Source: Halogranum rubrum
Lineage (GTDB): Archaea; Halobacteriota; Halobacteria; Halobacteriales; Haloferacaceae
NCBI RefSeq assembly: GCF_900114455.1
Contig: NZ_FOTC01000010.1
Coordinates: 35,738-99,737 of the forward strand
Reading direction: 5' to 3'
Length of the DNA: 64,000 nt
Shown: piece by piece, positions 41,298-63,401 of the stretch
Layout: each line of letters begins with the position of its first letter
Position numbering within the stretch: the first letter of the stretch is position 1
The notes under the pieces: generated by a model
Seen by the model: only the letters and a program-made list of their open reading frames with translations
The model's database searches: none
What the model was told of the DNA's origin: nothing
Made by a program: the position numbers and the translations under genes

Positions 41298-41329
41298 GCG
41301 CCGCCACCCTTCCACGGCGCAATAGAAAC
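41298..41329 (-). repeat. GGGTG hairpin leader, copy 1
   Basis: On the minus strand: TTTCTATT, then stem GCGCCG / CGGCGC (41315-41320 with 41298-41303) around a loop with AAGGGTGG. It lies upstream of the SWIM gene. Confidence 0.65.
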
Positions 41330-41372
41330 TCCCGGCGACGTGGAGAGCTGCTCATCGACGCGCTACACTGAC

Positions 41373-42299
41373 CTACCCGTCGATCACGTCGATGATCTCC
41401 TCTGCGGTGCTGCTAATCCGTCCGAACCGATCTTGGATCGACTCTGGTTCGTCATCCTGCCACGCGGCGAGATAGAACGCTGAGCCGCTCGTTTCAAGGC
41501 CGCAATACCGACCAACGATGTACGCGACGGCTTCTGCTTCGACTTCGCGCTTTGATCGTTCGGCCTCGTCGTCGACGTCGAAATGGAGCAGCGCGTGAGC
41601 GAACTCGTGAATTAGCGTAACTGCGAGGTCGGCCTGGTTCGTCCGTGCTTTCGCCTCAACGATCGGCGTGAAATCATGGATATCCCGCTGTTTGCAGACG
41701 CCCTTTGCGTCGCCGTGTGCCCACTCGTCAGCGTCGACGATGCGAACCGTCACGCCGAGCTCATCCGCTGCCTCAGTGAGTGCGGGTACGAGGCCCTCAG
41801 CGTCGCCAGTCGCCTCGGTCTCCAGCTCGGGAAGCGGCTCTCCCTCAGTCTGCGAGATATCGAACACAGCAGTGGGTTTGAACCCGACCAGCCCTTTCGA
41901 CCACTCCTCGGGTGGTGTCTCGTCGTATTCACAGTCGATGTCCTCGTGGTAACTGGGCGAGTTCTCGCATTCGGGGCACTGCTTCGTAATGATCGGTGCC
42001 CAGATCCAGATCGCCTGTTCGCCCTCCTGGACGTGCCGATCGAACTCATTCAGCCAGGTGTTGAAGCCAGCGACCTTCGTCGCCTCGGGACATTGGAGTT
42101 TGATGAGCAGCGTGTTGCGATGGGAGTAGTCGTGGAACCGACTCTGGACGTCGAGCCACTCTTGGAACTCATCGCTGGCCTGCGCCGCATCAACGTCGCC
42201 AACGAGTTCGTCGATCCATGCTTCAATCGTACTATGCATCTCGTCTGTTCGCGTGTCGGTCTCCTCGAAGGAGGCCGACGAGTCGTTCGTCGTAGCCAT
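41373..42299 (-). CDS. ArdC-like protein: ssDNA-binding N-terminus and zinc peptidase motif
   Basis: A 308-residue protein. The N-terminal 120 residues (SRFHDYSHRNTLLIKLQCPE, KVAGFNTWL) match the ArdC-type ssDNA-binding domain, which often starts with YSxxNxxLI and then W. A CPEC motif sits in the middle. The C-terminal half has TLIHEFAHALLHF, an HExxH-type zinc peptidase motif, and EVEAEAVAYIVGRYCG as the third ligand region. ArdC proteins are antirestriction or ssDNA-protecting factors carried by conjugative plasmids; this suggests horizontal transfer of the element. Confidence 0.82.
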   Translation of the reverse strand: MATTNDSSASFEETDTRTDEMHSTIEAWIDELVGDVDAAQASDEFQEWLDVQSRFHDYSHRNTLLIKLQCPEATKVAGFNTWLNEFDRHVQEGEQAIWIWAPIITKQCPECENSPSYHEDIDCEYDETPPEEWSKGLVGFKPTAVFDISQTEGEPLPELETEATGDAEGLVPALTEAADELGVTVRIVDADEWAHGDAKGVCKQRDIHDFTPIVEAKARTNQADLAVTLIHEFAHALLHFDVDDEAERSKREVEAEAVAYIVGRYCGLETSGSAFYLAAWQDDEPESIQDRFGRISSTAEEIIDVIDG

Positions 42300-42343
42300 G
42301 ATATTCTGAAATTCGCCTTACTGCGATCGCTTCAATTCAGCCC

Positions 42344-42372
42344 GCGCCGCACCCCTGACGGCGCATAAAAAC
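42344..42372 (-). repeat. GGGTG hairpin leader, copy 2
   Basis: Minus strand: GAGTTTTTAT, stem GCGCCG / CGGCGC around TCAGGGGTG. It starts 45 bases before the ArdC-like start codon and uses the same stem as copies 1 and 13. Confidence 0.7.
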
Positions 42373-42384
42373 TCATGACGGCGG

Positions 42385-42744
42385 TTAGCGGAGGGCGGCT
42401 TTCTCATCAGCGAAGCCGACTGTGACGAGGTAGTCGAGAAATGAATCGAACTGGTTGACGTCGCTGGGCCTGTCGGTCGCGAGGTGCCGCGTCCACTCGA
42501 TGGCCCACTGGAACACCGGATCAGTGCCGCCCGTACCGTGGATATACCACCAGCGGGCGGCCTTCAGCGCGACGAGCGGATTCGTCGGTGGCTGCTCGGG
42601 CGCGAGCGCTTGCGTAATCGAATGGATTTCCTCGGGGACATCTTCTGGTTCGACCCCGGTTGATTGGCTGTTCGCTACGTCGACTGGAATTGCATCGATC
42701 GAGACGTCGTTCGAATGCTGTTGTTGGCTCACGGAAATCACCAT
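42385..42744 (-). CDS. Unrecognised small haloarchaeal protein
   Basis: A 119-residue protein with a disordered N-terminus rich in Ser, Asp and Pro and a helical C-terminus (NPLVALKAARWWYIHGTGG, FQWAIEWTRHLA). No motif is recognised. It lies between the ArdC-like and DUF6610-like genes with hairpins on both sides, so it appears to be a separately led unit of the block. Confidence 0.65.
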   Translation of the reverse strand: MVISVSQQQHSNDVSIDAIPVDVANSQSTGVEPEDVPEEIHSITQALAPEQPPTNPLVALKAARWWYIHGTGGTDPVFQWAIEWTRHLATDRPSDVNQFDSFLDYLVTVGFADEKAALR

Positions 42745-42765
42745 CTTGGAGGGCCTGATCTAGCA

Positions 42766-42799
42766 CGCCCTCGTCCTCTCCGGAGGGCGCGAAAAACAG
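42766..42799 (-). repeat. Hairpin leader, copy 3 (no GGGTG)
   Basis: Minus strand: CTGTTTTTCG then stem CGCCCTC / GAGGGCG (42783-42789 with 42766-42772). Same position and T-rich lead as the other copies, but the loop lacks GGGTG. Confidence 0.5.
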
Positions 42800-42808
42800 G
42801 ACGCTGCG

Positions 42809-43819
42809 TCACGCAGGCGGGATGTAGACGCTCCGATCGCCAGCAATCTCCTCAAGGTTGTTCCGATGCCGGTGCGAGAAGTAGCACTCATAGCAGCAGT
42901 ACCCACAGACCGCTCCCGTGTCGTACTCGGCGACGTACGGGCCACGATCGGTCGTCCACACGTTCGCGCGGCACTCGGTACACGCCGCGCTCTCGATATC
43001 GCTTGGCGTGGGCCCGGAATAGGTGAGTGCGGTCTCGTCCGTCTGTGGTGTCGAATCGGGCCAGACGCCGTGGTCCTGCCAGAATTCTTTGAGCCGGCTG
43101 AGACTATGCCGGACCGTCTTTCGGACCGTGACGTGATCGGCGTCGCGACCACTGTCGTCCCAACCGTCGGCCGTCCAGAACTCGCCGAACTGTGCCCCGC
43201 GATGCAGACCATTCCAGTCGAGGCCGACGATGTCGGCCGGCGGGTCACCCGTCAGCGTTGGTTGGGTGAGCTGCTCCACGACTTCGAGTTGCTTGGGTGG
43301 ACTGCCACCGAGGATGTGGACGCGACGGCCCCGCCAATCGACGGGGTCGGAGAACTCGTGTGCAAGTCTGTCCGCATACCCTCGCGAGTAGCCGAGCACG
43401 ATATCGTCGGGAATTGCCTCGATGGCGGCCCGGCATTTTGGGACGATAATGAACTCCGTCTCGGGCAGTCTCTTCTGGACTTCTCGAATCTTAGCGACGT
43501 ACGACTGTACTTCTGCAGCGTCGTAGGCGTCACCGATGATACCCACGTCGGGCTCGTACTTGAGTGCCCGATTGACGTACCGGTCCAGGTCAGGATTCCG
43601 AAAATCGTTATCGAGCATTCCGACCGGGCACTCGAGGGTATCAAATTGCGACTGTTGATACGTGCAGTCCTCGCGAAACCCAGGGAGAAAGCCGAGAGTC
43701 AGCGCATCGATCGCAAACGGAACCCGATGGAGGAACGCCACGTATGCCGCTTGTCGAGCGTCAGAGTATGTCTCAGTCGAACTGTTGCTAACTGGGTCTG
43801 CGCTGTCGTGAATGGCCAT
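42809..43819 (-). CDS. DUF6610-like protein with C-terminal zinc site
   Basis: A 336-residue protein. The middle has alternating strands and helices (DVGIIGDAYDAAEV, TEFIIVPKCRAAIEAI, DDIVLGYSRGYADR, RRVHILGGSP) as in a TIM-barrel, then DIVGLDWNGLHRGAQFGEFW. The end has CTECRANVW and CGYCCYECYFSHRHR, a two-pair zinc site. I recall this family as DUF6610, known from haloarchaeal plasmids and viruses without an assigned reaction; the barrel-like pattern and sugar/queuine-enzyme-like loop order are only suggestive. Confidence 0.7.
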   Translation of the reverse strand: MAIHDSADPVSNSSTETYSDARQAAYVAFLHRVPFAIDALTLGFLPGFREDCTYQQSQFDTLECPVGMLDNDFRNPDLDRYVNRALKYEPDVGIIGDAYDAAEVQSYVAKIREVQKRLPETEFIIVPKCRAAIEAIPDDIVLGYSRGYADRLAHEFSDPVDWRGRRVHILGGSPPKQLEVVEQLTQPTLTGDPPADIVGLDWNGLHRGAQFGEFWTADGWDDSGRDADHVTVRKTVRHSLSRLKEFWQDHGVWPDSTPQTDETALTYSGPTPSDIESAACTECRANVWTTDRGPYVAEYDTGAVCGYCCYECYFSHRHRNNLEEIAGDRSVYIPPA

Positions 43820-43844
43820 GAGGAGTCTCCTGCGGGACTCCGTC

Positions 43845-43876
43845 GCCCCGCAGGGCTCTCCGGGGCAAGATAGACC
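43845..43876 (-). repeat. Hairpin leader, copy 4 (no GGGTG)
   Basis: Minus strand: GGTCTATCTT then stem GCCCCG / CGGGGC. Upstream of the DUF6610-like gene and next to repeat copy f. Confidence 0.5.
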
Positions 43877-43885
43877 TCGCTAGCA

Positions 43886-43926
43886 TTAACCAACAGAAGT
43901 AGAAACTGGGACTGCGTGTTGGTTAA
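43886..43926. repeat. TTAACCAACA inverted-repeat element, copy f
   Basis: TTAACCAACA (43886-43895) and TGTTGGTTAA (43917-43926), 21-base spacer. The stop codon of the gene at 43923 is part of the right half-site. Confidence 0.88.
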
Positions 43927-44222
43927 TCTCCGAACAGGCACTGCATCGCTGCCTCGTCACCGGTGAGCGTCTGTTGGTCGGCGTCAGTATCCGCGAAGAG
44001 CGTCGACTGATCTCCTGTTGAGGACTGCGTTACTTCTGGCCGGTCGTCGACGCCGAACTCACTAGCTTCGGGGCGATCGAGCCGCGAGTCTCGGTCGCGA
44101 TGATCGACGTCTGCACCGAAGTCCTCGAGCGAGGTCTCGACGTTCGTCTCGGCCAGTTCGAGCTGGCCGTCCTCACCGAACGCAGTCTGTTGTTGAATCT
44201 CGATCTCAGGTCGGTCGCTCAT
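43923..44222 (-). CDS. Small acidic Gln/Asp-rich protein
   Basis: A 99-residue, very acidic, largely disordered protein ending DEAAMQCLFGD. No family is recognised. Its stop codon TAA lies inside repeat copy f. A weak hairpin leader precedes it (44233-44262). The short conserved-looking C-terminal QCLFGD could be a docking peptide; that is speculation. Confidence 0.6.
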   Translation of the reverse strand: MSDRPEIEIQQQTAFGEDGQLELAETNVETSLEDFGADVDHRDRDSRLDRPEASEFGVDDRPEVTQSSTGDQSTLFADTDADQQTLTGDEAAMQCLFGD

Positions 44223-44232
44223 CTATTTTGAA

Positions 44233-44262
44233 GCCTCCACCCCTGACGGCGCCGACAAACAG
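44233..44262 (-). repeat. GGGTG hairpin leader, copy 5 (weak stem)
   Basis: Minus strand: GCTGTTTGTC then GGCGCCGTCAGGGGTGGAGG; the loop matches copy 2 but the stem is only GCC / GGC. It lies 11-40 bases before the start at 44222. Confidence 0.5.
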
Positions 44263-44276
44263 CCCGCGAGCGTCAT

Positions 44277-44498
44277 TTAGGTATCTTCTGACCGAAGCTC
44301 GCTGGCTCGGTCATCGAGTCGGCGTAGGATCTGGACACGTTGCTCGTTGGCGTTCTCGTAGGCAACGCACGCTCGCAGCGTCTCCATGTCGTTGATCGTC
44401 GCGATGCCGGCGTTGATGAGTCGTGTATTCGGTGGGTCGAGACGCTGTTCTGGGGACAGTTCGGCCGAATCTGGATCGTCCTCTCCTGTGTCGCTCAC
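44277..44498 (-). CDS. Small helical protein
   Basis: A 73-residue protein with a GTG start. The second half (TRLINAGIATINDMETLRACVAYENANEQR) is helical and resembles a short coiled-coil or helix-hairpin-helix-like unit. No family is recognised. It shares the leader type with its neighbours. Confidence 0.6.
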   Translation of the reverse strand: MSDTGEDDPDSAELSPEQRLDPPNTRLINAGIATINDMETLRACVAYENANEQRVQILRRLDDRASELRSEDT

Positions 44499-44505
44499 TC
44501 CTGGT

Positions 44506-44537
44506 CGCCTCCACGCCTCCTGAGGCGACGAAAAACA
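44506..44537 (-). repeat. Hairpin leader, copy 6
   Basis: Minus strand: GCTGTTTTTCGT then CGCCTC paired with GAGGCG, two alternative stems (44514-44527 or 44506-44527). Upstream of the gene starting at 44498. Confidence 0.5.
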
Positions 44538-44548
44538 GCACCCGCCCG

Positions 44549-44824
44549 CTACTCGTCGTCTCTTGGTTGGATCTGGCGAGCGTCCTCGGCGAGGTCGTGG
44601 ATGTACTCCCGAAGCGTCTCCATGTCCTCGCGGGCCTCTTCGAGCGTTTTCGCCTTCACTTTGGCCGTGAGCTTATCCTGATCGCGGGTGCCAGTACCGC
44701 GAGTGAGCTTCACGGTGAGTGAGACGCCGACATCGCTTCGCTCGACGTATTCAGTAGGAGTCTGTCGCGTACTGTTCTCGGTCGATTCTGCGTTCGTACG
44801 GGACTGCTGGGTGGGTTCTGACAT
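44549..44824 (-). CDS. DUF7389-like small protein
   Basis: A 91-residue protein. A Ser/Thr/Gln-rich N-terminus is followed by VGVSLTVKLTRGTGTRDQDK and a helix (KTLEEAREDMETLREYIHDL). The strand with RGTGTRDQDK is typical of a haloarchaeal family I recall as DUF7389; the function is unknown. The ATG at 44824 is preferred, since a longer frame would overlap the next gene by about 60 bases. Confidence 0.7.
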   Translation of the reverse strand: MSEPTQQSRTNAESTENSTRQTPTEYVERSDVGVSLTVKLTRGTGTRDQDKLTAKVKAKTLEEAREDMETLREYIHDLAEDARQIQPRDDE

Positions 44825-44843
44825 GGATTGCTCTCTGTAATCG

Positions 44844-45248
44844 TTAGTTGACGGACGGTGCGATTGGTTCGTCGACTGTCTCACGAAGGGCTGCATCGAT
44901 CTCACGCCTGGTGAGTCGCCAGCAGCCGTCTGGCTCTGTACACTCCAGCTGGCTCACCACCTCGGTCTTGAATTCCATGTACTCCGACAGGGCCACCTCC
45001 TCGTCGTCGGTGTAATCGAGTAGGAGGGCAAGCGCGAGTTGGGCCGGACCGCTCCCACCATATCCCCATTCGAAGCCTGAGGGGCTGTGGTTCGCCAACT
45101 CGAGACTCCGATCGGGTGTGAGCTGTTCCTGGCCAGGCTGTTTCTCGACGATGGCGCGGCCTCGACGACGGTAGCCGACGTAGACGACGTCGGAATCATC
45201 CGAAGGACGTGACTGTTCGCTCGGCTGTGGATCACTAATTCCACTCAT
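44844..45248 (-). CDS. DUF6166-like protein
   Basis: A 134-residue protein. VVYVGYRRRGRAIVEKQ, then SPSGFEWGYGGSGPAQLALA and LLDYTDDEEVAL are the usual segments of the DUF6166 family, found on plasmids and in phages of bacteria and archaea, without known activity. It sits 19 bases from the DUF7389-like gene, so those two may share a transcript. Confidence 0.72.
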   Translation of the reverse strand: MSGISDPQPSEQSRPSDDSDVVYVGYRRRGRAIVEKQPGQEQLTPDRSLELANHSPSGFEWGYGGSGPAQLALALLLDYTDDEEVALSEYMEFKTEVVSQLECTEPDGCWRLTRREIDAALRETVDEPIAPSVN

Positions 45249-45275
45249 AGTTCTGTTCGAGGGGGCTCGTTCGAG

Positions 45276-45306
45276 CACCCCCGCACCCTTCAGGGGGTGA
45301 AAAAAC
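45276..45306 (-). repeat. GGGTG hairpin leader, copy 7
   Basis: Minus strand: GGTTTTTTCACCCCC, loop TGAAGGGTGC-like, then GGGGGTG. Stem 45276-45282 with 45293-45299. Upstream of the DUF6166-like gene. Confidence 0.6.
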
Positions 45307-45326
45307 CCCCCACCGAACGCCTCTCC

Positions 45327-45722
45327 TTACGCCAAGTGAGACACGTCGGCAGGTTCTTCGATGTCAGCGAATTCACCGCGCTCGACCGGCTCCCAGTCCT
45401 CGCTGGGTTCGGGACTCCACCAGTCGACCTCGTAGGCGTCCGGTGCGCCGAGGATCTTCATCCTCGCCGACCCGTCAGGCAGGTCACGACGAAGTTTTTC
45501 GTCGACGTGGAGATTCCAGGTCGTGTCGGTATCGAAGCAGGCGAGGACGGCTTCCTCGTAGCCACGATCCTCATGTGATTCTTGGAGTTCCACCTGTGTG
45601 TTGCAGTTCTTGCAGAACACGCCCTCGAAGGGGATATGACTGAACACCTCGTGCCCGCAGACCGGACACCAGAGGAACTCGAACAGTGCCTCACTGTGAC
45701 GGTTGAGTACTTCGAGGCTCAT
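45327..45722 (-). CDS. DUF7567-like zinc protein
   Basis: A 131-residue protein. The N-terminus has WCPVCGHEVFSH and FCKNCNTQVEL, a zinc ribbon, followed by YEEAVLACFDTDTTWNLHVD and a C-terminal WWSPEP...EEPADVSHLA. I recall near-identical proteins as DUF7567, in haloarchaea only. The ATG at 45722 is used because the longer frame runs into a hairpin leader. Confidence 0.72.
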   Translation of the reverse strand: MSLEVLNRHSEALFEFLWCPVCGHEVFSHIPFEGVFCKNCNTQVELQESHEDRGYEEAVLACFDTDTTWNLHVDEKLRRDLPDGSARMKILGAPDAYEVDWWSPEPSEDWEPVERGEFADIEEPADVSHLA

Positions 45723-45731
45723 CGTTGAACC

Positions 45732-45778
45732 GCCCCGGTCAAACCGGGGCATCCTCTCCTGCCCGGACGATAAACAGC
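45732..45778 (-). repeat. Hairpin leader, copy 8
   Basis: Minus strand: GCTGTTTATCGTCCGGGC, then stem GCCCCGGT / ACCGGGGC with a three-base loop (45732-45750). Located between the DUF7568-like stop and the DUF7567-like start. Confidence 0.6.
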
Positions 45779-45799
45779 TCCCAACGCATTCTCGACCGA

Positions 45800-46165
45800 T
45801 TAGCGCTCGGCGCCGTACACGATCTCTGAGGGTGCTTCGTACCCACAGTTCCGACACTCGAACCAGCGCTGGACTTTCGCGCGGTCAGCTGTTTTCCCTC
45901 CGACGACCACGTCGCCGTTCAGACACTCTGGACAACTCAGTTCGGGCGCTGGCCTGTCACGGAGCGCGTTCCGAAACGCCGTCGCGTCCTTTGTCTCATA
46001 CCCTCGCGACCAGACCGGGTAGCCGTCGACGAGGATCGCTCCACGCCATTTGTACCGGTAGGAGTCCGGGGCTCGATGCAGGACAGCTCGGGCACCCGTC
46101 TCAGTGTTCCGATACTCGAGAGTAGGCGTGCGATTTCTCCGTCGCCAGTTTGTGATTCGGGGCAT
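45800..46165 (-). CDS. DUF7568-like zinc-ribbon protein
   Basis: A 121-residue protein: N-terminal strands RITNWRRRNRTPTLEYRN, GARAVLHRAPDSYRYKWRGA, then a C-terminal ribbon CPECLNGDVVV and WFECRNCGYEAP. I recall this family as DUF7568. It is three bases downstream of the next gene (46169), with which it is likely co-transcribed. Confidence 0.72.
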   Translation of the reverse strand: MPRITNWRRRNRTPTLEYRNTETGARAVLHRAPDSYRYKWRGAILVDGYPVWSRGYETKDATAFRNALRDRPAPELSCPECLNGDVVVGGKTADRAKVQRWFECRNCGYEAPSEIVYGAER

Positions 46166-46168
46166 CGA

Positions 46169-46660
46169 TTAGAAGTGGACGTCGGCAGGCACGATCCAGA
46201 GGTCCTCGCTTTCCTCCAGAATTCGATCCAACTGTTCGCGATGGCGGATGCCGCTCGCGTGCTCGGTGTACAGGAAGATCGTCGGGCCGTCGTACGCACC
46301 GACCTGGTGGAAGGCGTGCCGGGCGAGGTCCCCGTCGCGCATGATCTCCTTGTCGGAGAGCTCGCCGATGGCTTCTTTCACCCGCTCGAGATTCCGCTCG
46401 AACTCCTCCTTCGTCGCCTCCCAGCCGCGTTCCAGCAGTTCCTCTCCATCGTTGGAATCCACGGGCGCAGCCACCGGCAGGTCACCCCAGCGGGCTGAGC
46501 CGGCAACTGATGTTCCATCTTCGTCGAACGTCACATAGTAATCGAAGACAGCGCCAGCGTGGGGGGCCGCGCCGACGAGTCGATCGAACACCGTCTTACC
46601 AGTGGCGAGAGCGTCGTCTCGCGTTGATGCCTCTACGAGCGTGTAGATGACCATATGCAT
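46169..46660 (-). CDS. Unrecognised haloarchaeal protein (ferredoxin-like pattern)
   Basis: A 163-residue protein beginning MVIYTLVEASTRDDALATGK, then FDYYVTFDEDG and helix EELLERGWEATKEEFERNL, ending ILEESEDLWIVPADVHF. Alternating strands and helices at both ends suggest a ferredoxin-like fold, with no catalytic motif. The segment EQLDRILEESEDLWIVPADV is similar in pattern to one in the protein encoded at 48405-49286 (EQLTRLLDDTDDEVWLVPAI), so the two may share a domain. A second ATG at 46654 is possible. Confidence 0.65.
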   Translation of the reverse strand: MHMVIYTLVEASTRDDALATGKTVFDRLVGAAPHAGAVFDYYVTFDEDGTSVAGSARWGDLPVAAPVDSNDGEELLERGWEATKEEFERNLERVKEAIGELSDKEIMRDGDLARHAFHQVGAYDGPTIFLYTEHASGIRHREQLDRILEESEDLWIVPADVHF

Positions 46661-46714
46661 TGGTTTTCACCTCGGTCTGCCGACGCACCCAACAGTGCTC
46701 TCCGCCGCAACTGG

Positions 46715-46751
46715 GAGCGCCGGCACCCATCGCCGGCGCTCAATAAACACC
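46715..46751 (-). repeat. GGGTG hairpin leader, copy 9 (strongest stem)
   Basis: Minus strand: GGTGTTTATT then a 10-bp perfect stem GAGCGCCGGC / GCCGGCGCTC around GATGGGT. Upstream of the gene starting at 46660. Confidence 0.7.
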
Positions 46752-46768
46752 GCCTGAAGAGCCGCTCG

Positions 46769-47206
46769 CTACATTTCGTCCCGTCGTAGCTCACTCACCT
46801 CCTCAACGGTGATCGTCAGATTCTCAGTTTCGTAGTCAGCATCGAATGTAACCGTGAATGCATTCGATTCGTAGGCGGCGTGGTAGGCACGGTGCCGTCT
46901 GAGCGACCCTGTCGCCTTGAAGTGAAAGAATGCGGCTGCGGTGTACGGTTTGCTCGCGGTCTCAACCTGCGCCTCGACCGATGCAGGGAGTGCGATCTGT
47001 GGAGTGTCCGTGTCGATACCGGCAGCGAAGGCTTTGGCCTCATCGAGGGTTGCTCGCGAGTGCTTGGGCGTTTCCCCGGTCAAGACGTTCACTGGTGTTT
47101 CCGTCTCGTCGGTGAACAGGACATCCTCGAAGGTTTGGGTTCCGAGGATTGCATCGGAGCCGAGTTTACAGTCTGTGAATGGGTCATCGTAAGGCCGTTT
47201 GGTCAT
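46769..47206 (-). CDS. Unrecognised protein of the plasmid block
   Basis: A 145-residue protein. The start MTKRPYDDPFTDCKLGSDA is followed by LDEAKAFAAGIDTDTPQIAL and a C-terminal beta-rich part FTVTFDADYETENLTITVEEV. No family is recognised. It has hairpin leaders on both sides and is therefore probably a single-gene unit. Confidence 0.65.
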   Translation of the reverse strand: MTKRPYDDPFTDCKLGSDAILGTQTFEDVLFTDETETPVNVLTGETPKHSRATLDEAKAFAAGIDTDTPQIALPASVEAQVETASKPYTAAAFFHFKATGSLRRHRAYHAAYESNAFTVTFDADYETENLTITVEEVSELRRDEM

Positions 47207-47224
47207 GGGATCACCAAGCCCCAG

Positions 47225-47258
47225 AGGGGCTCAGTACTCCCAGCCCCTGATAAACAGC
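47225..47258 (-). repeat. Hairpin leader, copy 10
   Basis: Minus strand: GGCTGTTTATC then AGGGGCT / AGCCCCT around GGGAGTACTG. Upstream of the gene starting at 47206. Confidence 0.6.
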
Positions 47259-47307
47259 CTTTGTCGTTCAACGGGCCGACTAGGCCTGCCACTCCAGCGG
47301 TCACTAC

Positions 47308-47787
47308 TCAGTGGTCTTCGATCTCGATGGAGACCGATACATCCTCGAAAGAGGTGTCGGAGTCCTGGAGATGGAGCAGGACACTAAATTCGAGGATTTT
47401 GGTGTATCGGTCGATTCCTGCTGCGTTGAGCATAAATCGAGATGGGCAGGTAAGTCGGGCAAGCTTCTCGATCTCCTCCCAATCGTCCGGTGAGATCTCG
47501 TTATCGGGGAGATCGCCGAACAGCGCTTCGCTGTTGTCGAATGCTTCCCATCGATCCAGGAGACAGAAATCGGCGAGTGCGTGCCGTACAGTTTCGTGTA
47601 ACCGATCGTGGTATCTTGGCGGGAGCGACTCGTTCCCGTCAATGGCCTCCTGGATGTGGCCGCGATCGACTAATGAGAGGAACCCATCCGACCAGTCCTT
47701 GCGGGTCGGATTGAGTTCTGACCCGCATTCGGGGCAGTAGTTCGCTGTAGGTTCGACCGCGGTATTACAGCTCTCACAGACTACCAT
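47308..47787 (-). CDS. Zinc-ribbon protein
   Basis: A 159-residue protein. Two Cys pairs at the N-terminus (VVCESCNTAVEP, NYCPECGSEL) make a zinc ribbon; the rest is helical (RYHDRLHETVRHALADFCLL) and ends with strands EFSVLLHLQDSD and DVSVSIEIED. The function is unknown. No hairpin leader is visible before it. Confidence 0.7.
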   Translation of the reverse strand: MVVCESCNTAVEPTANYCPECGSELNPTRKDWSDGFLSLVDRGHIQEAIDGNESLPPRYHDRLHETVRHALADFCLLDRWEAFDNSEALFGDLPDNEISPDDWEEIEKLARLTCPSRFMLNAAGIDRYTKILEFSVLLHLQDSDTSFEDVSVSIEIEDH

Positions 47788-47862
47788 ACGTCCGATTTAG
47801 ATGCGACCAGCCATCAAATCGACGTGCGAACGTCTGATTGCTTCGTTCAGAGCTGTCCGATG

Positions 47863-48243
47863 CTACTCGTCGATTGGTTCGGGGGCGCTGAGATCCGCGT
47901 ACATGACTTCCCCTTCCCGGATTACGTAGCGCGTTGCGAGGACTGGGAATCGGCACTTCGTGAACCCTGCTGTCTGGATATCGAGTTCCTCGTCGGGTTG
48001 GAGGTAGTCAGCGAGTGTACGTAGAAATTCTTGCGTCATGACCCCGCCTTCGTAATCGGGAAGTCCGTCTTCTTGGGCTTCGTAGACCTCGAAGTCGTCG
48101 AAGCCCCAGATCGTGAGCTCTCCATCCTGGTCCACCTCCCAATTGAGGGTTCCGAAGCAATAGTTCTCACAGAGCTGGCGGACCGCCTGTGCATCCGTTA
48201 CGAGCGCACCGGTCGATGTCGTCGCTGCTTGGAGTGTAGCCAT
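47863..48243 (-). CDS. Unrecognised small protein
   Basis: A 126-residue acidic alpha/beta protein (NWEVDQDGELTIWGFDDFEV, FPVLATRYVIREGEVMYADL) with no recognised family. It has a weak hairpin leader upstream and belongs to the same leftward block. Confidence 0.62.
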   Translation of the reverse strand: MATLQAATTSTGALVTDAQAVRQLCENYCFGTLNWEVDQDGELTIWGFDDFEVYEAQEDGLPDYEGGVMTQEFLRTLADYLQPDEELDIQTAGFTKCRFPVLATRYVIREGEVMYADLSAPEPIDE

Positions 48244-48267
48244 CGGTTGTACTCAGGACGTTTGTGC

Positions 48268-48298
48268 GCCCTGCACCCTTCTCGGGGCTAACAGACCA
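48268..48298 (-). repeat. GGGTG hairpin leader, copy 11
   Basis: Minus strand: GGTCTGTTA then GCCC, loop CGAGAAGGGTGCA, GGGC. Upstream of the gene starting at 48243. Confidence 0.55.
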
Positions 48299-48344
48299 TG
48301 GCAGAGGCGGCCAGGTGGGACTCAATGAGACAAACCCAACCAGA

Positions 48345-48384
48345 TTAACCAAAGCCAACCACCGTAATTACCATTGTTGGTTAA
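48345..48384. repeat. TTAACCAACA inverted-repeat element, copy g
   Basis: TTAACCAAAG (48345-48354) and TGTTGGTTAA (48375-48384), 20-base spacer. It lies 20 bases after the stop of the gene at 48405. Confidence 0.78.
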
Positions 48385-48404
48385 GCCGGAGCTGCTTTCA
48401 CCAG

Positions 48405-49286
48405 CTATGTCGGAGTCGGTCCATATCGATTGGTGCCGCACACGTCGCACTCCCAGATGGGTTGGCCTGACCACGTCTCGTCGGGGAGTGACTCGAAGTC
48501 ACTGAATCGATGACCAGTTTCTCGTCCGCACTGCTGGCACTCAAGGGAGTCTCCGGTCGACGTCCCATCTTCCTGGTTGTCGCTCCCGGTCTCATCAGTT
48601 GTATGTTGGAGAGCGATCGCCGGCACCAGCCACACCTCATCATCGGTGTCGTCGAGTAGTCTCGTGAGCTGCTCCTCGTCGCGAATACCACCACCGCGTT
48701 CGTCGTAGAGGACTGTCTCGCCCTCCTGAGCGCCGTCCGATGTTGGCTGGTCACTCCACTCGATCCGGTCTTGCGCTGCGGCCAAGAGTCGCTCACCGTC
48801 GCCTGACGCAATCTGGACTGCAGTAGGGAGTGTCGGCCACTGGTCAGCCAGCTGGGGCGCAGGGTCTTCGTCGAGATCGTAGATGAGCGTACAGTCGTCG
48901 ACGGCCTGTTCCGCTTCGTTCGAAGCGAGGAGCATCGCGGCGGCACTGCCCTTCGCGAGGGCACCGTAGTACGTCGATGACTTGACGAACATATGGACGA
49001 TTCCGAGGAGTGTTGCCGATGTCGTATCGTCCGGGTCGGCGGACTCATCACCGAGATGGTTAGCGAGACAGAATCGGCATTTCGTCTGCGATGCTGGGAT
49101 TGACGCGCCACAGGAACGACACTCATGGTCAGCGCCTGGCGGTTGTTCGGGATACCCTCCTGTGCTCGCTGCAACGCGTTGCCGTCTTGGATCGCCGCCA
49201 CAACTCGTGCTGATCTTCTCGTCCGGAATTTGGACGGCTTCGCCGGTCGGACGCAGTTCCTCGAAGTCGGAGTAGCGGCCGGTCAT
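48405..49286 (-). CDS. Double zinc-ribbon protein of the plasmid block
   Basis: A 293-residue protein. An N-terminal ribbon HECRSCGASIPASQTKCRFC (about 54-73) and a C-terminal ribbon ECQQCGRETG...IWECDVCGTNRYG flank a helical middle (SSTYYGALAKGSAAAMLLAS) and LIYDLDEDPAPQLA. Similar haloarchaeal proteins have been given the label biosurfactant protein, which I do not trust. The ATG at 49286 is chosen; 49307 is possible. A TATA-like TTTAAATA precedes it at about 49321-49330. Confidence 0.68.
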   Translation of the reverse strand: MTGRYSDFEELRPTGEAVQIPDEKISTSCGGDPRRQRVAASTGGYPEQPPGADHECRSCGASIPASQTKCRFCLANHLGDESADPDDTTSATLLGIVHMFVKSSTYYGALAKGSAAAMLLASNEAEQAVDDCTLIYDLDEDPAPQLADQWPTLPTAVQIASGDGERLLAAAQDRIEWSDQPTSDGAQEGETVLYDERGGGIRDEEQLTRLLDDTDDEVWLVPAIALQHTTDETGSDNQEDGTSTGDSLECQQCGRETGHRFSDFESLPDETWSGQPIWECDVCGTNRYGPTPT

Positions 49287-49382
49287 AGAGAGATCTACTG
49301 CGAACATGCCTCGTCTTTGGATTTAAATAGTAGTCTCAGGCGTCTGCTTGGTCAGTTCGGTTCGATAGAAATCGTTCACTCC

Positions 49383-50309
49383 TCAGACCACCTGTTCATC
49401 CAACGTATCTCGGTGTGTCCGGACCGTCGCCTTCGAGGCGTTTGCCACGTCCGCGGCTTCAGATTGCGTCAGCCATTGGCTCTCCTCGCGACCGGCCTTG
49501 TAGAGGCAGGCCGCTGCGAACCCGGCTGGATGGACCCCGGTCGTCACGCCGCGCTCTTCAGCCTGCTCGGCAAGGGCTCGTGCCCGCAGCCGGATTGTAT
49601 CAGGACATTCAAGGTCCGAGGCGAGCCGCGGAACGTACATACTGGGAGAGACGGGCTTGGTAGGGAGGCCGAGTTCCTCGTTCAGCGTTTTGTACGCGTT
49701 CGTAACTCGTGACTCCGTGACGCGGGCCATTTCGCTGACTTCGCCCAGCAACCGCGAGAGGCCGTTGCACCGGCAGGCCCCGTACACGCTGGCCGCGGCG
49801 ATGGCCTCGATGGATCTGCCACGAAGCAGATCCTCATTCTGGGCACTCCGGAAGAGCTGACACGCCTGGTCACGGACCGAATCGGAGAGCTCGAGCGCAC
49901 TCGCCAACCGGCGCACTTCGCCCAGGCCGTGGGCGAGATTCCGCTCCGCTTTTGACCGCCAGCGACCCCGAGTCTGTTCGCGACGCATCCGCGCGAGTCG
50001 CCGTCGCTTCTGCCCAGAGATCTCGTTCCCGTTCGCGTCGGTGCCGCGACCGATTTTCGTCGACAGGCCGCGATCGTGGCGGGCGGCAGTGAGTGGGGCG
50101 CCCGTTCGTTCACACTCCTCGTCGTCGTACGCCCGCCACTCCGGCCCATGATCGATACGCTGTTCGTCGATTACCAGGCCACAGTCTTCGCAGACTGTTT
50201 CGACTGTGTTCGTCGTGACCCATCCGTCGCACTCGGGACATTGGTTCGCGCTCGACTCTGCTCGGACGTCCTCGTCGAAGCCAGTTTCGTAGATGTCTCT
50301 AGTTGCCAT
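49383..50309 (-). CDS. tfb: Transcription initiation factor TFB (TFIIB homologue)
   Basis: A 308-residue TFB. Zinc ribbon: NQCPECDGWVTTN and TVCEDCGLVID (about 20-45). B-finger/linker: RIDHGPEWRAY...RTGAPLTAARHDRGLSTKIG. Two cyclin-fold repeats follow, SIEAIAAASVYGACRC and GVHPAGFAAACLYKAG being the matching helices, ending in a helix-turn-helix (SQSEAADVANASKATVRTHR-like). Plasmid-borne TFBs in haloarchaea can direct transcription of their own gene sets. The ATG at 50309 is used because the upstream extension includes a hairpin leader. Confidence 0.93.
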   Translation of the reverse strand: MATRDIYETGFDEDVRAESSANQCPECDGWVTTNTVETVCEDCGLVIDEQRIDHGPEWRAYDDEECERTGAPLTAARHDRGLSTKIGRGTDANGNEISGQKRRRLARMRREQTRGRWRSKAERNLAHGLGEVRRLASALELSDSVRDQACQLFRSAQNEDLLRGRSIEAIAAASVYGACRCNGLSRLLGEVSEMARVTESRVTNAYKTLNEELGLPTKPVSPSMYVPRLASDLECPDTIRLRARALAEQAEERGVTTGVHPAGFAAACLYKAGREESQWLTQSEAADVANASKATVRTHRDTLDEQVV

Positions 50310-50348
50310 CGTTCTCACCGTGGTCAGGGAAACCGCCAGTAGAGCGAT

Positions 50349-50377
50349 CCCCTCACCCATCGAGGGGTAAATAGACC
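50349..50377 (-). repeat. GGGTG hairpin leader, copy 12
   Basis: Minus strand: GGTCTATTTA then CCCCTC / GAGGGG around GATGGGT. 40 bases upstream of the TFB start. Confidence 0.65.
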
Positions 50378-50405
50378 CTCCGGAGTATCGCGTCTCCAAT
50401 TCCAA

Positions 50406-51134
50406 TTAGTCCTCGATATCGGCCGTAGTGGAGAGCCAGAACGTGTCGTAGTCTACATTCCAACGCGCCGCATTCGAGGCGACGCCCTGAACATGGTTCT
50501 CACCGGTAATCAGAACAACCTGTGAACAATCGTGCTTCTCGCAGGCTGAGACAATATTCTCAAACATTCGTTCGTCCCGGATTGGTCGACGAACATCGCC
50601 GAGTCTCGTCCCTATCGTCGTCGCGAAGGCAACCGATCCTAAGGCTGCAATCATCCAAGGAATCGAACCGCTAAATGCCAGTGTCACCGTGATCAGGAGA
50701 AAAATGACTGCAAGCCAGCTCATCAACGTCAAGTGTCGAGGGACCAACTTGGCACGTTCTATTAGAGAGACGTCTACTGCTTCCCATTCCACTTCGTGTT
50801 TATCGGAGAGCTGTTTGGCAGCCTGAAGACATTGTGTCCGTCCGCCACTCTTCAACGTGAGCTGATTGGCTTTTCCTGAAGCGACCATCTTCGCTGCGAA
50901 AGCTAGATTGCCGACGGCAAATGCAGCCAACCGAAGTATGCCGAAAATCACTGCTAACGGGTTCTTCACTACGGTCCACGCAGAATATTTTATCTTCGAC
51001 GAGTCTCCCTCTGGTGATTCATGGAAAATTCGGTCGAACTCTCCATCGACTTTCTCATCAACTAATGACGGAACACGACGATCGGGATGGCGCACTCCTA
51101 AAATCAATAGGTGGTTCGGTTTTTCAGCGCTCAT
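50406..51134 (-). CDS. TraB/PrgY-like membrane protein
   Basis: A 242-residue protein. Start HLLILGVRHPDRRVPSL, then three probable membrane segments: PLAVIFGILRLAAFAVGNLA (about 58-78), LTLMSWLAVIFLLITVTLAF (about 135-155) and IPWMIAALGSVAFATTIGT (about 157-175). The end RPIRDERMFENIVSACEK and VVLITGENHVQGVA has the R...R-x-x and GxxH pattern of TraB/PrgY proteins, which act in peptide or pheromone inactivation in bacteria. Similarity is partial. It is more AT-rich than its neighbours. Confidence 0.5.
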   Translation of the reverse strand: MSAEKPNHLLILGVRHPDRRVPSLVDEKVDGEFDRIFHESPEGDSSKIKYSAWTVVKNPLAVIFGILRLAAFAVGNLAFAAKMVASGKANQLTLKSGGRTQCLQAAKQLSDKHEVEWEAVDVSLIERAKLVPRHLTLMSWLAVIFLLITVTLAFSGSIPWMIAALGSVAFATTIGTRLGDVRRPIRDERMFENIVSACEKHDCSQVVLITGENHVQGVASNAARWNVDYDTFWLSTTADIED

Positions 51135-52516
51135 TTCACGTTCATTTTGTGGTGACTGGTTGACGGGGTGTACAAGTCATAGGAGTCAATCTATGGGCTA
51201 CACTCTGGACTAAGGCTGAAGAAATCGAAATCGAAGCTGGAAGACTCGAGTTCCTCTTCATCCAGCGCTTCGACTCGTTCTACTTCGCTTTCGTCCAGGA
51301 AGTCGTATCCTTCGCCGATTTCACGGGTAATCCGCTTAATCACAGCTAAAACCTCTGAGATGCCCGATCGAGTCAGTGTGAGAAGCTCCTTGAGCAACAC
51401 TACGTAAGCCTTCAAACCTAGCGTCCGAGCAACGAACCCGAGCAAGTATTTTCGCGCCATACCCACAAGGAAAGACGCTACACGACCTGTAACGCCAAAC
51501 GCTGTTGCAAGAAGGTCAGCGATTAAGATTCCGAGACTCAACAACATATTCTCGATCTCACTTACTGCTTCTTCTGGATCTGCCTCGGTTACCGCACATG
51601 CATCATCAACTAATTGACTGAGACTGCTGACTACAGGAAGGAGTGACATACTCCACCGTGTCCAGCTCGTTGTTCGGGTTGTCAATTGGTACGCCAACGA
51701 AGCATCGTACCCTAACTGATCCTCGACGAGGCCTAGGACGATTTTGAGACCGGAGAGAACTTGAGCTGCTTCAGGTACGGACTCTTCCAAATTACTTCCA
51801 TGGAACTTCTCGGGGACTTCGACACAGATGGCAGATGCCAAGTCCCGTCCTGCCTCCACTAATGGTGATTCTTCCTCTGGGAGTCCAGTATACAGTTCCT
51901 CCATCTTCGTCGGTACCTGGTTCTCCACCTTTTCTAAGGCAGGATTGACTGCTCGAACAGAGACATCTACCGACACCCTGTCCTTTGAGGTAGATTCTAG
52001 TACATCATCTGTCCAATCGAATACAGCAAAGTAGTCACCTGGTTCCACCACATGTGACTCCATCAACGCACTGGACGATTCCCGGGTTAGACACTCCAGA
52101 GCATACATATCTACTTGAGGAGAGCCTTCTCCCCAATCCAGCTGGCTATCTCCCCACTTTGGGATATTAGCTAGATGTATATTCTCGCGGTGGGTTTTTG
52201 TCGGCAGAGAGATCTGCCCTAACGGTCCCAGCGAGTACGTATTATCCGTTAGAAGCGGTCCATCTACAATCGGGAACCGACCGACTTTCGTCTTGTACTC
52301 CCCGAAACCGTCCTCATCAAATATCAAGACGTCCGGCGTATCGAAGCCCTCGTTCGGGTTTACTTCGTACTCAATCAGCATAGGTTCCTCCCATCCGCCA
52401 TCAATCTCAAACGCCCAGTAACGACGCTCAGGCGACAGCACAAGTTCGCCATATGCTTCTGAGTGGCTCTGTTGAAACCCTCAGAGAGTTACAGGTTGGG
52501 CCGGTAGTCTGACCGG

Positions 52517-56224: not shown

Positions 56225-56983
56225 TGGAATCACTTACAGGGTGATTTCCGACGAAGGCGCTCACGCGCCGACACCGCGATGCTATGACATCGCGGTTTTC
56301 CGACGACACCGACCGACAGAACCATCTGCGCGCTCTCGCTCGCGCCTTCGCGAGCGCCCTATGGGCGCGAGCGAGAGCGCGCCCTAGTGAGGCGAATCAT
56401 CCAGCACCGCGCGCCGACCCGCCCGGAGCGAGCGGCCAGCGGGATATGCCCGCTCGTGTCCGGCCCGGACTGCGGGTCCGTGTCCAGGGCGACTGTCGCC
56501 GAGAACGCGCGCCGCGGTGTGGCGCGCGCCAGCGCAGGCGGCACCAAGCCCTGGAACGCGAAAGCCCGCGAGGGGCGCAACCGACGGGGATACCCGCTGG
56601 CGTCGAGGGCACATGCATTTTAGCCCGGAACGGGCGCGGGCGGTGCGGAGAGCGCCCGCATGCCCGGAATGGTCGGTCGCGAGCGACGCGGAGGGCGGCA
56701 GCGGCGAGCGGGGCGGGCCGTAGAGAAACACGGTTCAACCGGGCCTGGCGCTCAGTGACACAGCTGATATCCTGGTGGACTCAGAAAGGGCGAGGCCGTC
56801 TCGGTCGTCCCCCGACCCCGCAAGCACCACAGGCACGAGGAGCGCAGCGTGGGTCGCGGGATGCCGAGCGGTCGAGGGCTTTCGTTGCGCTTGAAACGAC
56901 GGATTCGGGTCAGAAGCCAACCATTGCTCGTTCCTCTAGCTCCTGGTATTCGTCGTACTCGAAGGAGATTCTAGTTCCTCGAT
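56225..56983. other. GC-rich region without a convincing gene, with strong hairpins
   Basis: No frame in this 759-base stretch looks like a haloarchaeal protein: all give low-acid, Arg-rich translations. It holds a perfect 19-bp inverted repeat, GCGCGCTCTCGCTCGCGCC at 56328-56346 with its complement at 56364-56382 (17-base loop), and a shorter one at about 56273-56295 (CCGCGATG / CATCGCGG). These are upstream of the ssDNA-binding protein gene. It could be a structured leader RNA, an sRNA gene, or a second origin-like or transfer-related site. Confidence 0.55.
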
Positions 56984-59736: not shown

Positions 59737-59820
59737 ACAATCAGTTTCATTTTAACAATCAACATATAAGCATATCGGCGTCGGTTTATTGATCTGTTCT
59801 AACAGGGGCGTGACCGGCGT

Positions 59821-60434: not shown

Positions 60435-60470
60435 GTGAATGCACGCTCCGGCACGCTCGTAGGCGCGCCT

Positions 60471-60494
60471 CACGCCTTTCGGCGTCGACAGACC
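60471..60494 (-). repeat. Hairpin leader-like element before the small winged-helix gene
   Basis: Minus strand: GGGTCTGTCGACGCC then GAAAGGCGTGAGG; stem ACGCC / GGCGT. Resembles the leaders of the 41-50 kb block. Confidence 0.45.
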
Positions 60495-60689
60495 CTGTTC
60501 CTTGACTGGGGGAGTACTGGGAGACTCACCGCTTCGGAGAAGGGATAATGCACAACTTTCTTTCACCGTAGTTGGCGGCGAGTCGTCTCCTAGAGACAGA
60601 GCGTGAGTTGAGCAGATACTCGCCGAGAGCGATCTGCTCCGAACAAAATCGTGGGTGTCTCACTGGGTTGAGGCACTTGATAAACGCCA

Positions 60690-62099: not shown

Positions 62100-62539
62100 A
62101 CCCAACCATCCTCATGTGGCGTTTAACGCTTTGCGGTGGGACGGCCAGCAAAGACAAGCGGTCCACCAAACCCACGGCAGGAGCTTTCTGGGGTCGCGAT
62201 GTCGGAGCTACAAGTCCACGAAGAACTCGATACGTAGGGGGAGCGTAATCTGAACCCAGCAATATTATTATATAATTATAAAATTATGAGTTTATTATGG
62301 ATGAACTAGCTATTTGGCTCTAATTATTGATGGCAACACTACTGCACGAAATGCGCTCTGTATTTTGCAGGAGATTCAGACAGCTGCCGCACAGTTCTGA
62401 ACAGCAAACATGGACTGACGCTCCGTCTCTAGGAGCAGAGTCACTAGTAACTACGGTGAAAGAAAGTCTCGAATCAACCCTATCCCCTGAAGCTGTGAGA
62501 CCCCAATCATCAAATCGGGAGACACCGATACACTATGTA
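62100..62539. other. Intergenic, AT-rich, no gene identified
   Basis: The stretch 62260-62320 is strongly AT-rich (ATTATTATATAATTATAAAA-like) and probably holds a promoter. An open frame from 62327 runs in phase into the gene at 62540, but its translation (Cys-, His-, Arg-rich, few acidic residues) does not look haloarchaeal, so I treat it as non-coding. Confidence 0.45.
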
Positions 62540-62773
62540 ATGGAGAACTCGCGGACGCCGCTCACCTCCAGCGAGGAAGCCGCGCTCGACCACCTCGAGC
62601 AGTACTTCGACGCTGCAGACGATGACAAGACCCCGACGAGAGAGGACGCCGTCGCCCATCTCCTCGACCAGGGCAATGAGCGTGCCGACGCGCGGGCACA
62701 TATCGAGCAGTTGCTGTTGAAGGGCTACCTCTACGAAGTCGAAGACGAACTGCGGCTGCCATCGCGACTCTGA
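62540..62773 (+). CDS. Small helical protein, winged-helix-like
   Basis: A 77-residue acidic protein: SSEEAALDHLEQYFDAADDD, TREDAVAHLLDQGNERADAR, HIEQLLLKGYLYEVEDEL. Three helices followed by a short hairpin fit a minimal winged helix or an EF-like helical unit. The ATG at 62540 marks where haloarchaeal composition begins. It converges with the gene at 62807. Confidence 0.6.
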   Translation: MENSRTPLTSSEEAALDHLEQYFDAADDDKTPTREDAVAHLLDQGNERADARAHIEQLLLKGYLYEVEDELRLPSRL

Positions 62774-62806
62774 CGAGAGCTGACTGCCGTTCCATGTGGC
62801 CAGCTG

Positions 62807-63289
62807 TTACAGCCAGAATATCGCGACGACGATTGCGAAGACCACGAGCGCACCCCACGACTTCATCTCCCAGAGCCGTCGCCCGACTCGCCGACACAAC
62901 CGTCGGAGCTGATCTCGGAGGGCTGCACGGCGTTCTGCCTCTAGGACGTTGACCTCGTCGTAGTAGTCGCGTCGATCCGCAGGCAGCCTCCGGAGTGTTG
63001 TCTGGCACTCGCTACAGGTGTACTCGAACTCCGCCCGAACATGTTGCCGACGGAACTCTCGCTCACCGCCCTCGTCGAAGCTCGTCACCTCATACACCAG
63101 GAGTTTCGAGACGAAGCGGCGTGCCCCGCACTCTGGACACCGATCCATCTCGAGCGTTGGTGTCCCGTCGTCGCTGCTCCCTTCGTCTAGCCATCCAGAC
63201 TGCCGAGATTGCTCGCCAGTATCTCGTGGACTCGCGTGGTTCTCTGAAGACGATGCGGTCGCTGACTCGGAGTTACTGAACGTCGACAT
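62807..63289 (-). CDS. Zinc-ribbon protein with C-terminal membrane anchor
   Basis: A 160-residue protein. A Ser-rich N-terminus is followed by RCPECGARRFVSKLLVYEV and YTCSECQTTLRRL (zinc ribbon, about 50-105), a basic helix (RRAALRDQLRRLCRRVGRRL), and a hydrophobic end SWGALVVFAIVVAIFWL, a tail anchor. The function is unknown. A GGGTG hairpin leader is 80-112 bases upstream. Confidence 0.68.
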   Translation of the reverse strand: MSTFSNSESATASSSENHASPRDTGEQSRQSGWLDEGSSDDGTPTLEMDRCPECGARRFVSKLLVYEVTSFDEGGEREFRRQHVRAEFEYTCSECQTTLRRLPADRRDYYDEVNVLEAERRAALRDQLRRLCRRVGRRLWEMKSWGALVVFAIVVAIFWL

Positions 63290-63368
63290 GGTATCACTCA
63301 CTGACCGCACTCAGCTGTCCAGGCTCCTTCGCACGCCAGGAATCAATCCGAATGATCGTGACTGCTGA

Positions 63369-63401
63369 GCGCCGTCACCCTTCGTCGGCGCGAACAACAG
63401 C
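63369..63401 (-). repeat. GGGTG hairpin leader, copy 13
   Basis: Minus strand: GCTGTTGTTC, stem GCGCCG / CGGCGC around ACGAAGGGTGA. Same stem bases as copies 1 and 2, 22 kb away. Confidence 0.68.

What the first reader, a model, noticed from the sequence alone, without database searches (positions are those of the whole stretch)
41298..63401. A recurrent GGGTG hairpin leader in front of at least thirteen separate plasmid genes
Seen directly: between head-to-tail genes of the 41-50 kb block, the minus strand repeatedly reads a T-rich TGTTTAT-like tract, then a 5-10 bp GC stem, most with loop GA(A/T)GGGTG. Examples: 42344-42372, 46715-46751, 50349-50377, 45276-45306, 63369-63401. The stems differ in sequence but still pair (GCGCCG/CGGCGC, GAGCGCCGGC/GCCGGCGCTC, CCCCTC/GAGGGG), i.e. 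covariation, which points to a structured RNA. The loop GGGTG could pair with the 3' end of 16S rRNA, so a sequestered ribosome site or a protein-bound leader is possible. Genes led include ArdC-like, SWIM, zinc proteins and TFB, so this may be one regulon.
Basis: partly seen in the sequence, partly recalled or inferred. Interest (0 to 1): 0.78.

Follow-up and report, generated by a model that had tools for sequence, protein, structure and literature searches.

The report
Bistable hairpin leader of plasmid genes
Plasmids of salt-loving archaea carry one recurring short T run plus hairpin just before many of their genes, and one strand of that hairpin can instead pair with a stretch close to the start codon, so the element likely acts as an RNA switch that would tune the translation of a set of plasmid genes together.

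Summary
A T run (GTTTWT) and a G+C hairpin (P1) with loop GA(G/T)GGGTG precede 14 minus-strand genes here, two of them weak. Sites picked on T run and loop alone fold into P1 in 293 of 365 cases (reversed control 1 of 32). The element occurs in 62 of 116 sampled Halobacteria genomes, mostly in one-direction arrays of plasmid genes, and lies on the same strand as a VirB4/HerA-type transfer ATPase (49 same, 2 opposite). Rfam has no match.

New: in leaders long enough, P1's 3' arm is also complementary to a segment ending a median 11 nt before the start codon (P2). P2 exceeds shuffles in 20 of 21 families (17 of 20 under a stricter test; mirror control 5 of 20) and holds many more G-T (283) than A-C (55) pairs, as RNA would; P1 shows no such bias. 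P1 and P2 exclude each other. Leaders too short for P2 put P1 5-9 nt before the start codon.

Best reading: a bistable leader RNA, predicted to gate translation of a plasmid-wide gene set. There is no transcript evidence, no usual promoter was found upstream, and within-family covariation is weak. Main rival: P1 as a DNA-hairpin promoter.

The parts
41297..41329 (-). T run + P1 before gene 40396-41262; P2 strands 41303-41296 and 41289-41282
   Evidence: R1 36.6 bits; P2 reached by 15 of 200 shuffles
42343..42374 (-). T run + P1 before the ArdC-like gene 41373-42299; no supported P2
   Evidence: R1 33.7 bits; P2 reached by 116 of 200 shuffles; ArdcN 23.0 bits, cut-off 22.6
42764..42801 (-). T run + P1 before gene 42385-42744; P2 strands 42772-42764 and 42757-42749
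   Evidence: R1 14.8 bits; P2 7 of 200 shuffles
43843..43877 (-). T run + P1 before the DUF6610 gene 42809-43819; P2 strands 43851-43845 and 43838-43832
   Evidence: R1 15.1 bits; P2 23 of 200 shuffles
44230..44264 (-). weak short-leader copy before gene 43923-44222
   Evidence: R1 17.2 bits; imperfect stem
44504..44540 (-). short-leader copy (no P2) before gene 44277-44498, P1 ends 5 nt before GTG
   Evidence: R1 24.3 bits
45276..45308 (-). T run + P1 before the DUF6166 gene 44844-45248; P2 strands 45283-45273 and 45268-45258
   Evidence: R1 39.2 bits; P2 1 of 200 shuffles
45743..45779 (-). T run + P1 before gene 45327-45722; P2 strands 45751-45743 and 45739-45731
   Evidence: descriptor; P2 5 of 200 shuffles; alignment with 21 relatives
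46715..46752 (-). T run + P1 (10 bp) before gene 46169-46660; P2 strands 46725-46710 and 46693-46678
   Evidence: R1 40.7 bits; P2 0 of 200 shuffles
47225..47259 (-). T run + P1 before gene 46769-47206; P2 strands 47232-47226 and 47222-47216
   Evidence: descriptor; P2 8 of 200 shuffles
48268..48298 (-). T run + P1 before gene 47863-48243; P2 strands 48273-48267 and 48260-48254
   Evidence: R1 19.6 bits; P2 3 of 200 shuffles; P1 alone folds no better than shuffles
50349..50378 (-). T run + P1 before the TFB gene 49383-50309; P2 strands 50352-50343 and 50337-50328
   Evidence: R1 32.1 bits; P2 7 of 200 shuffles; TFIIB 121.4 bits
60461..60500 (-). weak copy before the gene ending at 60144
   Evidence: R1 13.1 bits, E 0.76
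63369..63401 (-). T run + P1 before the gene starting at ATG 63289 (end 62807); P2 strands 63375-63364 and 63315-63304
   Evidence: R1 29.4 bits; P2 2 of 200 shuffles

Best explanation
The element is a recurrent gene leader whose one strand (the 3' arm) is complementary both to the 5' arm (hairpin P1, loop GA(G/T)GGGTG, behind a T run) and to a segment close to the start codon (hairpin P2), and it likely works as a bistable RNA that is predicted to gate translation of the plasmid gene behind it. Shown: T run, P1, conserved loop, the second complementarity and its mutual exclusion with P1, the place before same-strand genes, the spread over Halobacteria plasmids. Inferred: that the whole leader is transcribed; that a factor, probably an RNA-binding protein of plasmid or host, reads the U run plus the loop and so holds P1; that holding P1 breaks P2 and changes access to the start codon in long leaders, while in short leaders P1 itself sits 5-9 nt from the start codon; that the genes form one regulon. 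The sign (on or off) is open and may differ between long and short leaders.
For: P1: 293 of 365 anchor-selected sites against 1 of 32 reversed; covariation between copies. P2: 20 of 21 class I families above shuffles, p=7e-5, and 20 of 21 above other families' leaders; stricter arms and dinucleotide shuffles 17 of 20, p=8.5e-4, mirror control 5 of 20; 10 of 13 window leaders beat at least 177 of 200 shuffles. P2 holds 283 G-T against 55 A-C pairs. The stretch from the 3' arm to ATG folds better than shuffles (mean z -1.05 over 20 families), the stretch after P1 does not (-0.14). P2 ends a median 11 nt before ATG (223 leaders). Families are either at 27-36 nt from T run to start or at 45 nt and more, none at 37-44, as expected if a leader has P2 or no room for it. 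No TTTT after P1 in 253 class I leaders, so a terminator is unlikely.
Against: No transcript data. No usual promoter upstream of the T run, even where the upstream gene is divergent. P1 shows no G-T preference (gain with G-T 22, with A-C 25 of 491 sites). Within one family neither P1 nor P2 exceeds shuffles in cells paired (368/500 and 254/500), and P2's extension in the 46169 family does not covary. The G-T of that family (70 of the 283) sits at one fixed position. P2 is not seen in one family (FAM 18) and is weak in FAM 11 and in the window's ArdC leader. RNA folding alone favours P2 (0.61) over P1 (0.23), and only 8 of 20 class I families show both above 0.1.
Confidence: 0.5

Rival explanations
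1. P1 acts as a DNA hairpin: T run plus hairpin form an unusual promoter that works on single-stranded or supercoiled DNA, letting a block of establishment genes be read as the plasmid enters a new cell; P2 would then belong to the RNA made from it.
For: No usual promoter upstream; T run resembles TTWT in 219 of 308 sites and lies about where a TATA box would for a start just past P1; P1 has no G-T bias; strand lock 287 of 723 against 1 of 134 genes; same strand as the transfer ATPase 49 to 2; ArdC-like gene in the block.
Against: P2 uses P1's 3' arm, which such a start would leave out of the RNA, and P2 has the G-T pairs of RNA. The T run tolerates G rather than A and has no BRE-like neighbour more often than chance would need (14 of 308 against 8 of 57 canonical boxes). 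The T run is not paired in a larger hairpin. Strand lock and polarity could be inheritance of one block. No oriT or relaxase was looked for.
Confidence: 0.2
2. A fixed leader RNA without switching: P2 (or P1 in short leaders) is a plain hairpin that sets a stable structure just before the start codon, for RNA stability, processing between genes of a long transcript, or start-site choice; P1 is a second, independent protein site.
For: P2 dominates in RNA folding; P2 and short-leader P1 end at similar distances from the start codon; genes are head to tail.
Against: P1 is the more conserved part and shares its 3' arm with P2, which a fixed fold would not need.
Confidence: 0.2
3. Mobile cassettes: the hairpins are recombination sites between gene cassettes, as attC sites of integrons.
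For: Small genes of unknown function in one direction with a hairpin between them.
Against: Gene order looks the same in the annotated plasmids compared by eye; the hairpin keeps a set distance to start codons; leaders carry P2.
Confidence: 0.03

Closest known systems
Bistable 5'-leader RNAs (attenuators, riboswitch-type and protein-controlled leaders; recalled as a class)
   Same: Two helices that share one strand, the second near the start codon
   Different: One design in front of many unrelated plasmid genes; no T run after the second helix; no known ligand; no Rfam match
Frpo/ssi single-strand promoters of conjugative plasmids (PMC11541004, passages read)
   Same: Hairpins before one-strand genes of a plasmid region with anti-restriction-type genes, near transfer genes
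   Different: Short hairpin, no bacterial -35/-10 elements, archaeal host, a second RNA-like helix downstream; transfer as single strand not shown
Phage N4 virion RNA polymerase hairpin promoters (PMC4496689, passages read)
   Same: Conserved loop, variable but paired stem bases
   Different: Longer stem and loop, no such polymerase looked for or found, T run in front, P2 behind
Canonical haloarchaeal promoter (TTWT, CGAAA, WW; PMC4983044, passages read)
   Same: TTWT within the T run in 219 of 308 sites
   Different: No BRE-like sequence, G+C instead of AT downstream

Membership tests
Bistable leader RNA | Two mutually exclusive helices sharing a strand | tested here: met
   20 of 21 class I families above shuffles; 17 of 20 under a stricter test; the four short-leader families have no P2
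Bistable leader RNA | Leader is part of the transcript | not testable with these tools
   No RNA data; only indirect, G-T 283 against A-C 55 in P2
Bistable leader RNA | Compensatory changes within orthologous leaders | tested here: inconclusive
   not above shuffles; one compensated pair in the window's 45327 leader
Transcription attenuator | T run after the second helix | tested here: not met
   0 of 253 class I leaders have TTTT between P1 and ATG
Rfam families | Match to any of 4227 models | tested here: not met
   0 at gathering score for the window; in 41000-51500 one chance-level match, mir-375 at E 0.99
Frpo/ssi single-strand promoter | Hairpin carrying promoter elements of the host polymerase in double-stranded form | tested here: not met
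   The T run is outside the stem and not paired by flanks
Frpo/ssi single-strand promoter | Genes on one strand of a region tied to transfer genes | tested here: met
   287 of 723 against 1 of 134 genes; 49 same, 2 opposite to the ATPase
Frpo/ssi single-strand promoter | Transcription from single-stranded DNA | not testable with these tools
   Needs in vitro transcription
Canonical haloarchaeal promoter | TATA box TTWT with BRE and AT at -10 | tested here: not met
   TTWT in 219 of 308, BRE-like 14 of 308, G+C-rich where -10 would lie; a trained motif scores >=6 on 3% of T runs
Integron cassette array | Shuffled cassette order with an attC-like site per gene | tested here: inconclusive
   Gene order compared by eye only, looks conserved

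The most novel reading that the evidence does not exclude
A two-layer control unit of archaeal transfer plasmids: P1 in the DNA serves as a hairpin promoter that fires while the plasmid arrives as a single strand, and the RNA it makes folds through P2, so that one short element gives a whole establishment region both early transcription and translational gating. I know of no hairpin promoter described for an archaeal plasmid.
Probability: 0.12. Interest if true: 0.93.

Novelty: new variant of a known kind. Interest (0 to 1): 0.72.

Why it matters
Structured leaders were called untypical for haloarchaea on the evidence of Haloferax volcanii (PMC4983044, passage read). One leader design before 22 gene families with two or more members (38 clusters with singletons), on plasmids found in about half of the sampled Halobacteria genomes, would be a large, unrecognised RNA regulon. 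It would mark a module tied to archaeal transfer genes, with an ArdC-like gene and many unknown small proteins that may help a plasmid settle in a new host, and would give a simple tag for finding such genes.

Tried and rejected
Promoter at a fixed distance upstream: AT profile flat after weighting (an apparent small rise in the unweighted profile did not survive), trained motif no better than controls upstream of hairpin genes (the motif is impure, it partly learned a repeated sequence). Larger hairpin that would pair the T run: absent. Terminator of the upstream gene: the T run is as conserved where the upstream gene is divergent. Integron-like cassettes: order looks conserved. Double-stranded operator: arms too variable. 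Leader peptides starting at GTG in the loop: looked at by eye only, dropped. I first leaned to a DNA-hairpin promoter and moved to RNA after P2. Results against my reading: (P1 weak in RNA folding).

Counting notes: loci overlap in part (L020/L071, L025/L026, L047/L053, L049/L053 share more than half of sampled 60-mers; L001 is part of L016 and was left out of the scripts from then on). Sequence tests used unique leaders; the gene and strand counts did not remove such overlaps. The 60 loci were chosen round strong R1 matches, so densities are not unbiased. One search counts sites directly before same-strand genes, with every site, has 399 on the array strand and 11 on the other. P2 tests used leaders with a P1 of at least 3-4 Watson-Crick pairs and a start codon within about 80-90 nt; others were dropped. 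In one search I copied 86 of 87 ATPase rows, 76 of 78 array-marker rows (fragments left out) and 20 of 31 helicase rows (the other 11 lie on contigs without an array marker). Genes in fetched loci come from my own codon-usage caller, compared by eye with one annotated plasmid. Gene 45327-45722 was never scanned against Pfam.
Full report
WHAT IS THERE. On the minus strand of 41.3-63.4 kb, genes are preceded by a T run (G-TTTWT), a G+C stem and a loop GA(G/T)GGGTG. A model (R1) built from 27 copies of the window and three related plasmids finds 12 minus-strand copies in the window (7 of them in the training set); two more were found by descriptor. Named genes behind it are ArdC-like (ArdcN 23.0 bits, cut-off 22.6), DUF6610, DUF6166 and a TFB.

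NOT CHANCE. With sites picked by T run and loop alone, 293 of 365 unique sites have a Watson-Crick helix (score 4 or more) round the loop; reversed sequence gives 1 of 32. Arms are diverse (76 distinct inner 5' arms among 310 sites) yet pair. In the 27 training copies no shuffle of 500 reaches the observed cells paired or covariation score, while two other measures are ordinary (221/500 and 49/500).

WHERE ELSE. In the window's genome 35 matches at E<=10 lie on six contigs: C10 (window) 10 minus and 1 plus, C11 11 plus and 1 minus (E 8.3), C13 6 plus, C3 4 minus, C15 and C8 one each. 62 of 116 genomes drawn from the class, in 28 of 45 genera, have a match at E<=0.001. In a phylum-wide draw 14 of 148 genomes match, all in the window's order; the list shows 24 genomes of that order, so about 124 lie outside it, none with a match (34 of 148 rows are listed, the rest are stated to have none). 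126 plasmid records share DNA with the block.

GENE COUPLING. Of 425 sites in fetched loci 375 lie directly before a same-strand gene, a median 29 nt before the start codon; 20 lie inside a same-strand gene, 5 inside an opposite one, 18 before an opposite one, 7 at an end. Within array spans 287 of 723 genes on the array strand carry the element, 1 of 134 on the other strand; none of 166 genes with an upstream gap under 45 nt has one; 57 of 59 loci with three or more sites have them on one strand. The genes form 38 protein clusters, 16 of them singletons. A VirB4/HerA-type ATPase (DUF87 34.5 bits) with a primase-like gene beside it (DNA_primase_S 25.5 bits, below the cut-off of 26.8) lies on the same strand in 49 cases and opposite in 2, upstream in 46 of 51, a median 31 kb away; a control helicase gives 8 and 3, a small control. 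TFB genes of this kind lie on many array contigs (read by eye, not counted).

SECOND HELIX. In leaders with room the 3' arm of P1 also matches a segment further down (P2). It was first seen in 136 leaders (6 or more pairs in 17.6% against 2.9% own-shuffled). By family: 20 of 21 class I families above shuffled (p=7e-5) and 20 of 21 above other families' leaders; with stricter arms and dinucleotide shuffles 17 of 20 (p=8.5e-4), mirror control on the upstream side 5 of 20. The stretch from the 3' arm to ATG folds better than shuffles (mean z -1.05 over 20 families), the stretch after P1 alone does not (-0.14). P2 ends a median 11 nt before ATG (223 leaders). In the window 10 of 13 leaders tested beat at least 177 of 200 shuffles, best 46169 (0/200), DUF6166 (1/200) and the 63289 gene (2/200); ArdC (116/200) and the two short leaders do not. 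P2 holds 283 G-T against 55 A-C pairs; 70 of the 283 come from one family at one fixed position. P1 has no such bias (22 against 25 of 491). RNA folding gives P2 0.61 and P1 0.23 on average, and in several families the 5' arm then pairs with the loop.

TWO CLASSES. By family, T run to start codon: 5 clusters below 37 nt, none at 37-44, 13 at 45-60, 4 at 61-80. The short class (FAM 10, 13, 14, 15) has no P2; its P1 ends 5-9 nt before the start codon (by eye), and 89% of 28 unique leaders at 36 nt or less have GGAG, GAGG, AGGT or GGTG in the ribosome-site window, part of the 3' arm itself.

HOW IT LIKELY WORKS. Two stems that share a strand, one with a conserved loop and T run, the other close to the start codon, are the layout of a bistable leader. 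I propose that a factor reads the U run and loop, holds P1, and so opens or shifts P2; in short leaders P1 itself sits at the start codon. No TTTT follows P1 in 253 class I leaders, so translation rather than termination is the likelier step. This paragraph is inference.

WHAT DOES NOT FIT. No usual promoter was found upstream of the T run, also where the upstream gene is divergent; the search is of limited power, since usual promoters are faint in these loci too. The T run stands about where a TATA box would for a start just past P1. P1's lack of a G-T bias, the strand lock and the transfer-gene polarity would suit a DNA-hairpin promoter as in Frpo or N4. Within-family covariation is not above shuffles.

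LITERATURE. Nine searches of the held library (listings only) showed no title or abstract describing this element; ArdC with haloarchaea returned one paper, unrelated by its abstract. Passages, not whole texts, were read in PMC11541004, PMC4983044 and PMC4496689.

Noticed in passing
window 43875-43942 and 48320-48390: TTAACCAAC / GTTGGTTAA type repeats, in part inverted, upstream of the leaders of the 42809-43819 and 47863-48243 genes; similar TTGGTTAA stretches precede relatives in L001 and L002.
   Followed up: no
G000 contigs C3, C10, C11, C13: The window's host carries at least four separate arrays of this element on different contigs, each almost wholly on one strand.
   Followed up: partly
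L014 (C10:285-15466, -): A VirB4/HerA-type ATPase, a primase-like gene, an AAA ATPase and several large genes without Pfam matches form a transfer-like block on the same contig and strand as the array.
   Followed up: partly
window 56607-56646 (+): Single plus-strand R1 match (21.3 bits) with a stem but an untypical loop; probably chance.
   Followed up: partly
G106:C1 843 kb and G065:C1 217 kb: The only two cases where the nearest array marker runs opposite to the transfer ATPase; G065:C1 holds three array markers.
   Followed up: no
C-rich families such as FAM 1, 3, 7: The 5' arm can also pair with the GGGG of its own loop, giving a third alternative hairpin next to P2.
   Followed up: partly
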